A stretch of DNA of 20,383 nucleotides from a virus. Shown here in pieces: positions 9,735-19,099 of this stretch (its first letter is position 1; each line of letters opens with the position of its first letter). A program made the position numbers and the translations under genes. The DNA lies in the IMG/VR virus record IMGVR_UViG_3300021138_002045, positions 1-20,383 of that record, one strand, 5' to 3'. Under the pieces are notes generated by a model. It did not search any database and was not told the origin of the DNA. It saw nothing but the letters and a program-made list of their open reading frames with translations.

Positions 9735-9742
9735 GGTTGACC
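9725..9742 (+). repeat. Inverted repeat GGTCAA-6-TTGACC covering the -35 box
   Basis: GGTCAA (9725-9730) and TTGACC (9737-9742) form a perfect 6-base inverted repeat with a 6-base spacer. The right arm is the -35 box of the first early promoter. The other two copies of the promoter lack the left arm, so an operator specific to this copy is possible but unproven. Confidence 0.35.
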
Positions 9743-9765
9743 AAAAATGCCCGTTCGGGTATAAT
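9737..9765 (+). promoter_or_regulatory. Early sigma70-type promoter, copy 1
   Basis: The -35 TTGACC (9737-9742) and -10 TATAAT (9760-9765) are separated by exactly 17 bases, close to the bacterial sigma70 consensus. It drives the 69-residue gene at 9795. The -35/-10 pair, part of the spacer (AAAAATGCC) and the downstream AGTAGTATAGT are repeated nearly unchanged in copies 2 and 3. Confidence 0.88.
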
Positions 9766-9794: not shown

Positions 9795-10004
9795 ATGAAA
9801 TTAAATGTTAATGATAAAATTACCTGGGTTAGTGCTGCCGGTAAGTTAAACGGAACAATTAAAAACATTGCATTATCCGAAAATGCCGCAGGAAAAACAG
9901 TTCCTTGGATTGATGTGCTTTACGGTGAAAACAACTGTAATGGCGTTAGAATTTGTGCTACAGACAGCAATCTTAAAATGATGAAAATAGCAAAAAACGG
10001 TTGA
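9795..10004 (+). CDS. Small early protein of unknown function
   Basis: This is a 69-residue protein directly under a strong early promoter, with ribosome site AGGAG. The sequence (VNDKITWVSAAGKLNGTIKNI, then NAAGKTVPWIDVLY) suggests a small beta barrel of SH3/KOW-like layout: short strands, a G-x-L-x-G-T-I turn, and a basic C-terminus (KMMKIAKNG). No function is recognised. Early, strongly expressed tiny proteins in phages are often host-takeover factors, but nothing here identifies a target. Its stop codon (10002-10004) lies inside the -35 box of the next promoter. Confidence 0.78.
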   Translation: MKLNVNDKITWVSAAGKLNGTIKNIALSENAAGKTVPWIDVLYGENNCNGVRICATDSNLKMMKIAKNG

Positions 10005-10029
10005 CCAAAAATGCCATTTTGGTTATAAT
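10001..10029 (+). promoter_or_regulatory. Early sigma70-type promoter, copy 2
   Basis: TTGACC (10001-10006), a 17-base spacer and TATAAT (10024-10029). The stop codon of the previous gene is embedded in the -35 box. The AGTAGTATAGT after the -10 is identical to copy 1. It drives the gene at 10062, whose ribosome site is AAGGAG. Confidence 0.88.
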
Positions 10030-10289: not shown

Positions 10290-10318
10290 TTGACCCAAAA
10301 TGGCCCGTTTGTTATAAT
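10290..10318 (+). promoter_or_regulatory. Early sigma70-type promoter, copy 3
   Basis: TTGACC (10290-10295), a 17-base spacer and TATAAT (10313-10318), followed by ATTAGTATAGTTAAATTT as in copy 2 with one change. It starts seven bases after the previous stop and drives the 36-residue gene at 10349 (ribosome site AAAGGAG). Confidence 0.88.
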
Positions 10319-10348: not shown

Positions 10349-10459
10349 ATGTTTAAAGAAAAGTTAAATGATATAGTTTTTGCAGTATTTGCCGTGTTAT
10401 GCGGAATCACAATTGGCCTCAATTTGGCTGAAATCATCAGCAAAAACTGTCATCTCTAA
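10349..10459 (+). CDS. Tiny early membrane protein (36 residues)
   Basis: This is a 36-residue protein with a short charged N-terminus (MFKEKLND), one hydrophobic helix (about residues 9-28, IVFAVFAVLCGITIGLNLA) and a short tail ending KNCHL. It is preceded by a strong promoter and an AAAGGAG ribosome site, which supports a real gene despite its size. It probably inserts in the inner membrane. Its last codons and stop form the left arm of a long stem-loop, so translation termination and RNA folding overlap. No function is recognised. Confidence 0.68.
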   Translation: MFKEKLNDIVFAVFAVLCGITIGLNLAEIISKNCHL

Positions 10460-10472
10460 TCGACAGTTTTTG
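10441..10472 (+). terminator. Strong stem-loop terminator at end of early cluster
   Basis: CAAAAACTGTC (10441-10451) pairs perfectly with GACAGTTTTTG (10462-10472), an 11-bp stem with a 10-base loop. The T-run of the right arm makes it plausible as an intrinsic terminator, and the A/T arms could work in both directions. It closes the transcript from early promoter copy 3. The GC core is only four pairs, so efficiency is uncertain. Confidence 0.6.
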
Positions 10473-10488: not shown

Positions 10489-10671
10489 ATGGAACCTAAC
10501 AAGAAAATAAATGTGCTGAGATATACCCTGACCCGCGATCAGATCATGACCTTTGTGGGCGGATTACACGACATACAGGCCGACATGATCGAAGCCATGG
10601 TAGAGAACAAAGGTCTCAAGGGCTATCCTGAGGCTAACGAAGTCATCAATCACATCCGAGGATTACGATAA
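10489..10671 (+). CDS. Small protein of unknown function
   Basis: This is a 60-residue mostly helical protein (YTLTRDQIMTFVGGLHDIQ, then MIEAMVENKGLKGYPEANEVI) with a basic C-terminus. The ribosome site AGGAG lies seven bases before the ATG. No membrane helix, cysteine or known motif is seen. It follows the terminator by 17 bases with no obvious new promoter, so it probably depends on read-through or an upstream promoter. The next gene starts in its stop codon (TAATG), which supports reality and coupling. Confidence 0.68.
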   Translation: MEPNKKINVLRYTLTRDQIMTFVGGLHDIQADMIEAMVENKGLKGYPEANEVINHIRGLR

Positions 10672-18184: not shown

Positions 18185-18219
18185 TTTTCCTATAATTCAA
18201 TTTAGTGTATAATAAATAC
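18185..18219 (+). promoter_or_regulatory. Candidate promoter for hsp20
   Basis: TATAAT (18208-18213) overlaps ATAAATAC (18212-18219), so the site could work as a sigma70-type -10 or as a T4-type late promoter. The -35 at 17-base spacing is poor (TTTTCC, 18185-18190). Transcription would start near 18220, right where the following stem begins. Confidence 0.55.
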
Positions 18220-18251
18220 TAATACGAATGCCGCAGTTTGGGTTCGTATTA
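18220..18251 (+). promoter_or_regulatory. 5' UTR stem-loop of hsp20
   Basis: TAATACGAA (18220-18228) pairs perfectly with TTCGTATTA (18243-18251), a 9-bp stem with a 14-base loop. It sits at the expected 5' end of the transcript, 16 bases before the ribosome site AAAGGAG (18267-18273), and does not include it. A stem at the 5' end can protect mRNA from decay. Because the ribosome site is free, a classical heat-sensing thermometer is not supported. Confidence 0.5.
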
Positions 18252-18279
18252 TGTCACTTGCTTAATAAAGGAGAAAACA

Positions 18280-18720
18280 ATGACTAAATTCACATCACTA
18301 GACCTCACCCCGTTTTATCGCAACAGCATAGGCGTAGATCGCTTGTTTGATAGACTTATCGATCAAATGGATCATGCCAGCGGGACCAACTATCCACCCT
18401 ACAACATTATCAAGACTGGCGAAAACAGCTTTGAAGTTCAGATCGCCATAGCCGGCTTTGGCGAAGGCGAAATTGAAATCACTGTCAATGATGGAAATCT
18501 GGTAGTTACCGGAAACAAAGATCCTGAAATTGAAACCGACACCACCGCCTATCTTTACAGAGGTATCAGTGCTAGACGTTTTGTACGCAGTTTTAGTCTG
18601 GCTGACTATGTTGAAGTGGTCAATGCTGTAAGCCGTAATGGTATCTTGAGTATCACACTAGAAAGAAAGATTCCTGAAGAACTCAAGCCAAAGACCATTG
18701 CAATCACCTACTCAAATTAG
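18280..18720 (+). CDS. hsp20: Small heat-shock protein, Hsp20/alpha-crystallin (IbpA-like)
   Basis: This is an ATP-independent holdase that binds unfolding proteins. The 146-residue protein has an N-terminal arm (FYRNSIGVDRLFDRLIDQM), the alpha-crystallin domain (about 40-130) starting at YPPYNIIKTGENSFEVQIAI and containing the signature NGILSITLER, and a C-terminal I-x-I motif (IAI) for oligomer assembly. Hsp20 genes are common in T4-type cyanophages and related phages. ATG 18280 is chosen over an upstream in-frame start because AAAGGAG lies six bases before it. It has its own candidate promoter and 5' stem-loop. A probable role is protecting capsid or other phage proteins during assembly, in concert with clpX and clpS alongside. 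Confidence 0.94.
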   Translation: MTKFTSLDLTPFYRNSIGVDRLFDRLIDQMDHASGTNYPPYNIIKTGENSFEVQIAIAGFGEGEIEITVNDGNLVVTGNKDPEIETDTTAYLYRGISARRFVRSFSLADYVEVVNAVSRNGILSITLERKIPEELKPKTIAITYSN

Positions 18721-18737
18721 TATAATAGTGTAAATAC
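18698..18737 (+). promoter_or_regulatory. Candidate promoter for clpS
   Basis: TTGCAA (18698-18703), a 17-base spacer and TATAAT (18721-18726) make a fair sigma70-type promoter whose -35 lies in the end of hsp20. GTAAATAC (18730-18737) follows directly, so an overlapping late promoter is also possible. The layout parallels the hsp20 promoter. Confidence 0.6.
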
Positions 18738-18763
18738 AGTGGAGGACCTGGTCCTCCACTGTA
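18735..18763 (+). repeat. Perfect 14-bp inverted repeat in clpS leader
   Basis: TACAGTGGAGGACC (18735-18748) and GGTCCTCCACTGTA (18750-18763) are exact reverse complements around a single T. As RNA this gives a GC-rich hairpin of about 12 pairs with a 3-base loop at or near the 5' end of the clpS mRNA. No T-run follows on either strand, so a terminator is unlikely. The clpS ribosome site AAGGA (18779-18783) lies outside it; an internal GGAGG is buried in the stem. It could also be a protein-binding site as DNA. Confidence 0.75.
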
Positions 18764-18790
18764 CCACAAAACAAGTAAAAAGGAATCGAG

Positions 18791-19099
18791 ATGGCACACG
18801 CCGACACAGTTACAAAAATAGAAATCAATCACAGCTTGCAAGAGCCACCTATGTTCAAAGTAATCTATCTCAACGACAGTCAAACAACCATGGAGTTTGT
18901 GATAGAAACCCTGATTGATTTTTTCAATTACAACACTGAAACGGCTGTGAAAATCACCGAAGACATTCATGTCACTGGCAGTGCCACGGTCGCTGTGTTA
19001 CCTTACGAAATAGCCGAGCAAAAAGGCATCGAAGTCACTGTGCATGCTCGCAGTCAAAACTACCCGCTACAAGTCAAACTAGAACCCGAAACAGTTTAA
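18791..19099 (+). CDS. clpS: ClpS-like N-degron adaptor
   Basis: ClpS recognises proteins with N-degron residues and delivers them to ClpAP. The 102-residue protein aligns with E. coli ClpS without gaps through the core: EPPMFKVIYLND (18-29), TTMEFVIETLIDFFNYNTE (32-50) and HVTGSA (60-65). The pocket residues N28, D29, M34 and H60 correspond to N34, D35, M40 and H66, with the same spacing; the second aspartate of the usual NDD is serine. The N-terminal arm that acts on ClpA is present (about 17 residues). No clpA is in the window, so it would need host ClpA or the phage ClpX. Its 3' end overlaps the reverse-strand phosphoesterase by four bases. Confidence 0.88.
   Translation: MAHADTVTKIEINHSLQEPPMFKVIYLNDSQTTMEFVIETLIDFFNYNTETAVKITEDIHVTGSATVAVLPYEIAEQKGIEVTVHARSQNYPLQVKLEPETV

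What the first reader, a model, noticed from the sequence alone, without database searches (positions are those of the whole stretch)
18185..18763. hsp20 and clpS share a leader design: promoter followed at once by a stem at the mRNA 5' end
In both leaders TATAAT is followed within about 8 bases by a perfect inverted repeat (9 bp at 18220-18251, 14 bp at 18735-18763), with the ribosome site left open downstream. The sequences differ but the architecture is the same, so the structure rather than the sequence may be selected. A 5'-terminal stem is known to slow mRNA decay by blocking 5'-end-dependent RNase E attack, as in ompA.
Basis: partly seen in the sequence, partly recalled or inferred. Interest (0 to 1): 0.58.

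Follow-up and report, generated by a model that had tools for sequence, protein, structure and literature searches.

The report
Phage heat-shock genes with RNA thermometers
The leader of this phage's small heat-shock gene looks like a ROSE-type RNA thermometer, a folded RNA that hides the ribosome site until it is warmed, and related phages place the same element before other chaperone genes, whereas the neighbouring clpS leader carries a different, simple conserved hairpin.

Summary
Both inverted repeats are real and both lie just after a TATAAT, but they are not one design. The hsp20 repeat (18220-18251) is hairpin I of a two-hairpin ROSE-type RNA thermometer. So the hsp20 ribosome site is hidden, not open. 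Rfam ROSE_3 matches the window below its cut-off (29.9 bits, E 6e-4). Across 89 aligned elements 94.9% of cells pair, with 255 double changes (67 in shuffles). Related phages carry the same element before dnaK, before groES (mostly ahead of a short ORF) and before a phasin-like gene; in a gene-blind IMG/VR scan all 80 loci read precede hsp20 or one of these. Cultured T4-like phages (Melnitz, Syn9, S-ShM2) have weaker forms. I found no report of phage ROSE elements. The clpS repeat (18735-18763) is a plain hairpin, conserved as plus-strand RNA and found almost only after hsp20; a 5' mRNA-stabilising stem is possible but unproven. No temperature response was measured.

The parts
18208..18213 (+). 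TATAAT -10-like box of hsp20; overlaps a T4-late-like box AATAAATA (18211-18218)
   Evidence: predicted +1 falls on 18220, the first paired base of hairpin I; TAAATA-type boxes are enriched upstream of starts
18220..18251 (+).
18253..18284 (+). ROSE hairpin II: GUCA 18253-18256 with UGAC 18281-18284 across the start codon; CUU-(bulged G18260)-CUU 18257-18263 with AAGGAG 18268-18273; loop 18264-18267
18270..18273 (+). hsp20 Shine-Dalgarno site, sequestered in hairpin II
18280..18720 (+). hsp20 (Hsp20/alpha-crystallin)
   Evidence: Pfam PF00011, E 3.9e-18
18721..18726 (+). TATAAT directly after the hsp20 stop codon
18731..18737 (+). TAAATAC box abutting the clpS-leader hairpin; more conserved than TATAAT
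18735..18763 (+). plain conserved hairpin between hsp20 and clpS
18791..19099 (+). clpS; its SD region at about 18780-18785 is predicted open
   Evidence: Pfam PF02617, E 1.4e-23

Best explanation
The hsp20 leader is a ROSE-type RNA thermometer. At low temperature hairpin II pairs the SD and start codon and blocks ribosomes; on warming, the weak anti-SD pairing (a bulged G and a G.U) melts and Hsp20 is made. Hairpin I is the stable companion at the mRNA 5' end. In related phages the same element precedes dnaK, groES (mostly via a short ORF) and a phasin-like gene, which makes a small phage chaperone regulon. The clpS-leader stem is a separate element, a plain RNA hairpin, most likely a protective stem at the 5' end of the clpS mRNA. 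Shown here: structure, covariation, family resemblance and gene context. Inferred: melting, temperature control, hairpin functions.
For: Rfam ROSE_3 at window 18223-18285, 29.9 bits, E 6e-4. In 8 relative loci scanned (L025, L041, L026, L080, L070, L038, L068, L088), 4 gave ROSE_3 matches, 6 in all, at 29.8-36.3 bits; Melnitz phage 34.1 bits. A phage-derived model R1 (12 seeds) finds 71 of 73 distinct hsp20 leaders and 18 further elements among 74 sources, 582 kb, at E<=1, with no other matches. Pair counts over 89 rows: 94.9% of cells paired; 255 double changes against a shuffled mean of 67, 0 of 500 reaching it; sliding by 1-3 columns gives at most 47.3% paired. The motif U(U/C)GCU is in 66 of 73 leaders; the other 7 have CUUCGUUU, which still allows pairing with a bulged G one place over. 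Descriptor UYGCU plus SD: 101 of 550 SD-bearing starts, of which I sort 82 as hsp20, 5 dnaK, 2 groES, 7 phasin-like, 5 other. clpS hairpin: 111 double-change cells against 28.5 in shuffles; in the stem without its two basal pairs, 33 G.U cells against 2 A.C cells (my count from the table), which fits plus-strand RNA and not a DNA dyad or minus-strand RNA.
Against: No ROSE_3 match in a phage of this kind reaches Rfam's gathering score of 43 bits. In the 8-locus scan, 4 of 8 loci gave no ROSE_3 match at all, and the 12 further phages gave none. Alignment A4 was fitted to the model, so its counts lean towards it. ViennaRNA does not single hsp20 out: its SD in the window (0.49 open at 37 C) is not the most closed of the window's starts, and predicted opening with temperature is slight. 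L070's hsp20 has no element of its own. No transcript ends, melting or expression data exist here.
Confidence: 0.76

Rival explanations
1. One reading: both stems are 5'-terminal caps that slow RNase E-dependent decay, and nothing else.
For: Predicted +1 lies at the stem in most hsp20 leaders; clpS predicted +1 would lie 1-5 nt before the stem (spacings, my arithmetic); both stems covary.
Against: hsp20 hairpin I has a conserved core and is coupled to an anti-SD hairpin; of 831 TAAATA boxes very few have such stems.
Confidence: 0.1
2. For clpS alone: the hairpin protects the 5' end of the clpS mRNA made from TATAAT 18721-18726.
For: TATAAT-like box at a fixed place after the hsp20 stop in 60 of 66 distinct leaders; SD free; hairpin precedes whatever gene follows.
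Against: When another gene sits between hsp20 and clpS (L050, L053, L062), the hairpin stays after hsp20 and clpS has none. TATAAT is degenerate in several leaders while TAAATAC persists.
Confidence: 0.45
3. The clpS-leader hairpin is a 3' stabiliser or attenuator of the hsp20 mRNA.
For: It follows hsp20 even when clpS is moved; other hsp20 phages have terminator-like hairpins at this place: L100-L102 and L169, a PA5oct-like phage.
Against: No U-run follows it; it lies downstream of a promoter-like box that is itself conserved.
Confidence: 0.3
4. A timing switch like T4 gene e: the late box TAAATAC abuts the hairpin, so early read-through RNA carries the whole stem and late RNA starts inside it.
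For: Late-type boxes GTAAATA/ATAAATA are enriched upstream of starts; T4 gene e precedent (PMC3014915, passages).
Against: The clpS SD is outside the stem; basal pairs AGU/ACU are kept in nearly all leaders, which implies that they are transcribed.
Confidence: 0.12
5. The ROSE-like leader is mainly an autoregulatory site bound by Hsp20 itself, as E. coli IbpA represses its own mRNA through the 5' UTR, so it senses aggregates rather than heat directly.
For: IbpA self-repression (PMC10474464, abstract and passages); the same element on dnaK, groES and phasin-like genes would let Hsp20 act in trans.
Against: Untested; not exclusive of thermosensing.
Confidence: 0.3
6. The clpS repeat is a DNA operator or a minus-strand terminator.
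For: Near-perfect palindrome; the model matches both strands.
Against: G.U cells in the stem far outnumber A.C cells.
Confidence: 0.04

Closest known systems
Short two-hairpin ROSE-like thermometer of Pseudomonas ibpA (Rfam ROSE_3 RF02523; PMC3669281)
   Same: Two hairpins; AUGCC...GGGU core with bulged G in hairpin I; U(U/C)GCU anti-SD in hairpin II; small heat-shock gene; about 62 nt. The Pseudomonas-type leader in record OQ572409 scores 69.2 bits with ROSE_3 and 17.3 bits (E 0.015) with the phage model.
   Different: In phages; below Rfam's cut-off; GUCA/UGAC clamp over the start codon; promoter of TATAAATA or TATAAT type; also before dnaK, groES and a phasin-like gene.
Rhizobial ROSE (RF00435) and enteric ibpA ROSE
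   Same: SD-occluding UYGCU hairpin upstream of small heat-shock genes
   Different: Those have three to four hairpins (PMC3669281 passage); the phage form has two.
Known phage RNA thermometers: lambda cIII, SPbeta blyA fourU, Caudoviricetes sigma70 fourU (PMC11182007, passages)
   Same: Phage-borne thermosensing leaders
   Different: Different classes (cIII alternative structures, fourU) and single genes, not ROSE and not chaperone genes.
ompA-type 5' stem (recalled)
   Same: Stem at or near the mRNA 5' end; possible for clpS
   Different: No decay evidence; hsp20 has an anti-SD hairpin as well.

Membership tests
ROSE RNA thermometer | Lies in the 5' leader of a small heat-shock gene | tested here: met
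   Hsp20 by Pfam; 71 of 73 distinct leaders hit by R1
ROSE RNA thermometer | U(U/C)GCU anti-SD pairs with the SD with a bulged G | tested here: met
   66 of 73 leaders; the other 7 have CUUCGUUU; helix 4 pairs in 98.9% of cells
ROSE RNA thermometer | Separate stable upstream hairpin with covariation | tested here: met
   Helices 1-2: 10 pairs with changes on both sides
ROSE RNA thermometer | Rfam ROSE_3 gathering score (43 bits) | tested here: not met
   29.9 bits in the window; best phage match 36.3 bits. So I call it ROSE-type, not a filed member of RF02523.
ROSE RNA thermometer | SD opens and translation rises with temperature | not testable with these tools
   Only ViennaRNA estimates, inconclusive
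5'-terminal mRNA-stabilising stem (clpS) | Stem starts within a few nt of +1 | tested here: inconclusive
   Predicted from TATAAT only
5'-terminal mRNA-stabilising stem (clpS) | Structure, not sequence, conserved in RNA | tested here: met
   Covariation and G.U excess
5'-terminal mRNA-stabilising stem (clpS) | Stem lengthens mRNA half-life | not testable with these tools
   No decay data
Intrinsic terminator (clpS hairpin) | U-run after the stem on the same strand | tested here: not met
   18764 onwards reads CCACAAAACA; not called by the terminator scan

The most novel reading that the evidence does not exclude
Lytic T4-like phages run their own heat-shock regulon: a shared ROSE-type RNA thermometer sits on phage hsp20, dnaK, groES(EL) and a phasin-like gene, so the virus meters chaperone supply by temperature or protein damage without the host's sigma-32. 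In the well-studied cyanophages a compact form with a UUCG loop may do the same for hsp20, a cyanophage core gene.
Probability: 0.58. Interest if true: 0.8.

Novelty: new variant of a known kind. Interest (0 to 1): 0.68.

Why it matters
hsp20 is a core gene of T4-like cyanophages (PMC3037559, abstract and passages), and 505 of the 50,697 deposited phage records hold a relative (a few of these look like host DNA). A thermosensing leader on it would mean that ocean and lake phages read temperature directly, which is testable with a reporter fusion in E. coli and relevant to infection in warming water. It also widens ROSE from bacterial small heat-shock and ABC-transporter genes to viral dnaK and groES.

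Tried and rejected
One shared leader design: rejected by the survey of 831 TAAATA boxes and by the different anatomy of the two elements. DNA operator or minus-strand terminator for the clpS repeat: disfavoured by the G.U excess. Known Rfam family at gathering score: none in the 11 loci; at E-value thresholds only ROSE_3 is relevant in the window and relatives. ViennaRNA temperature series: inconclusive. Naming the third regulon gene: Pfam Phasin_2 only at E 0.0036-0.034 in 3 of 6 proteins, below its cut-off, and a weak phasin match in NCBIfam, so 'phasin-like' is tentative. Bacterial origin of the element: the one genome-contig scan gave 2 loci, of which the Chelativorans leader is a true ROSE RF00435 at 52.1 bits; no wider host search was possible. 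Literature searches for ROSE or thermometers on phage heat-shock genes (open-access PMC only) listed none; the two papers on cyanophage small heat-shock proteins (PMC5028025, PMC3827213) hold neither 'thermometer' nor 'untranslated' (term search only).

Full report
What was claimed.

The observation. The two perfect inverted repeats are at the stated places. The 14-bp repeat is unmatched in 10 Markov resamples of the window; the 9-bp repeat alone is only mildly unusual. The window is a 20,383-base virus record. It encodes a ClpX-like AAA protein, S21, Hsp20 and ClpS in a row.

The hsp20 leader. Rfam's ROSE_3 model aligns end to end with 18223-18285 at 29.9 bits, E 6e-4, below its gathering score of 43. 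Hairpin I is a lower stem, a U.G pair, a bulged G and a short inner stem. Hairpin II pairs CUUGCUU with AAGGAG around a bulged G, and GUCA with UGAC over the start codon. Thus the ribosome site is not open.

Relatives. Scans of IMG/VR gave 80 clpS loci (594 candidates, best 80 kept) and 21 hsp20 loci. The hsp20 leaders fall into 74 distinct ones; one (L070) has no element, so 73 were aligned. A model R1 from 12 of them finds 71 of the 73 at E<=1 and misses L100 and L101. On the 89 matched rows, 15 of 23 pairs have changes on both sides, 255 cells in all against 67 in shuffles; slid structures lose it. The alignment was fitted to the model, so this leans towards it, but the plain MAFFT alignment shows the same stems by eye.

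A regulon. The other 18 matches lie about 2 to 2.7 kb upstream of hsp20. Five precede dnaK directly (L026, L038, L068, L070, L080; Hsp70 by Pfam in L026). Thirteen precede groES-groEL with a short ORF in between; nine of the thirteen were read and all nine show groES and groEL, the other four (L011, L019, L036, L044) were placed by their short ORF or position. Cpn10 and Cpn60 are confirmed by Pfam in L041. In 20 phage records R1 finds 33 elements at E<=0.01: 20 at hsp20, 5 at dnaK or groES, 8 elsewhere (sorted by me). The 8 precede a protein of about 80 residues that is weakly phasin-like.

Cultured phages. Of 17 deposited phage hsp20 leaders read (5), R1 finds 10: Melnitz-3 strongly (42.4 bits), S-CREM1 and P-TIM40 weakly, and 7 of 12 at 12.3-25.1 bits, E 2e-5 to 0.07. 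The anti-SD descriptor is present in 14 of the 17, if the start is moved in S-SRM01, S-CAM3 and S-SSM4, and absent in L162, L169 and L170 as annotated. Rfam reports none of the 12. So in cyanophages the case is weaker and rests on the motif and a short hairpin, often with a UUCG loop.

Promoters. Predicted +1 from the -10 hexamer lies within 3 nt of the first paired base of hairpin I in 55 of 68 leaders, and at 0 in the window. A TTGAC -35 is present in 27 of 68. Boxes of the type ATAAATA, TAAATAC and GTAAATA are enriched about 10- to 18-fold upstream of starts in pieces of two of these phages, like T4 late promoters. I cannot say which promoter is used.

The clpS leader. The hairpin abuts TAAATAC; TATAAT or a near form starts right after the hsp20 stop in 60 of 66 distinct leaders. 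The model R2 finds a match in 17 of 18 phage records, in 16 of them in the hsp20-clpS region (G017 has none and G011's single weak match lies elsewhere) (places compared). The arms change together: 111 double-change cells against 28.5 in shuffles. G.U cells far outnumber A.C cells in the stem (33 against 2), which points to plus-strand RNA. Where another gene sits between hsp20 and clpS (L050, L053, L062), the hairpin stays after hsp20. A 5' cap on the next mRNA, a 3' end of hsp20 mRNA and a gene-e-like timing device all remain open; I prefer the first at about 0.45.

Known or new. ROSE elements are known in bacteria (PMC3669281, PMC11342760, passages). Phage thermometers named in print are lambda cIII, SPbeta blyA and a sigma70 fourU (PMC11182007, passages). 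Seven searches of the open-access library listed no ROSE element in a phage; most subscription papers and all preprints were not covered. Hence a new variant of a known kind. Temperature control itself is inferred.

Noticed in passing
L003 748-960, L010 1286-1480, L041 1288-1484 and similar: Between the ROSE-type element and groES lies a short ORF of about 8 codons, often MSK...LT with a conserved TGACCTAGCGTC around its stop, followed by what looks like a second promoter; its role is unknown.
   Followed up: partly
L142 569-808, L136 1561-1782, L143 561-806, L144 561-833, L141 14451 onwards: A family of about 80-residue phasin-like phage proteins under the same RNA element.
   Followed up: partly
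window 9737-9765, 10001-10029, 10290-10318: Three near-identical strong promoter modules (TTGACC, 17 nt, TATAAT, then AGTATAG) before three small genes.
   Followed up: no
window 10441-10472: An 11-bp hairpin flanked by A-run and T-run that looks like a two-way terminator before the ORF at 10489.
   Followed up: no
L003, L021, L037, L043, L048, L083, L086 hsp20 leaders: Seven leaders have CUUCGUUU in place of CUUGCUU: the bulged G appears moved by one position while pairing with the SD is kept.
   Followed up: partly
L159 (NC_031906.1) 286 and 361: The annotated hsp20 start of S-CAM3 is probably too far downstream; an upstream ATG at 286 has the ROSE motif and SD before it.
   Followed up: partly
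L169 620-760: A Pseudomonas jumbo phage (30-3, PA5oct-like) also has hsp20 followed by clpS, with an apparent terminator between them.
   Followed up: partly
L156 (OQ572409.1), L158 (CAKLQH020000043.1): Two records filed as phages appear to be host DNA (an ibpA-type leader; argC, clpS and clpA).
   Followed up: no
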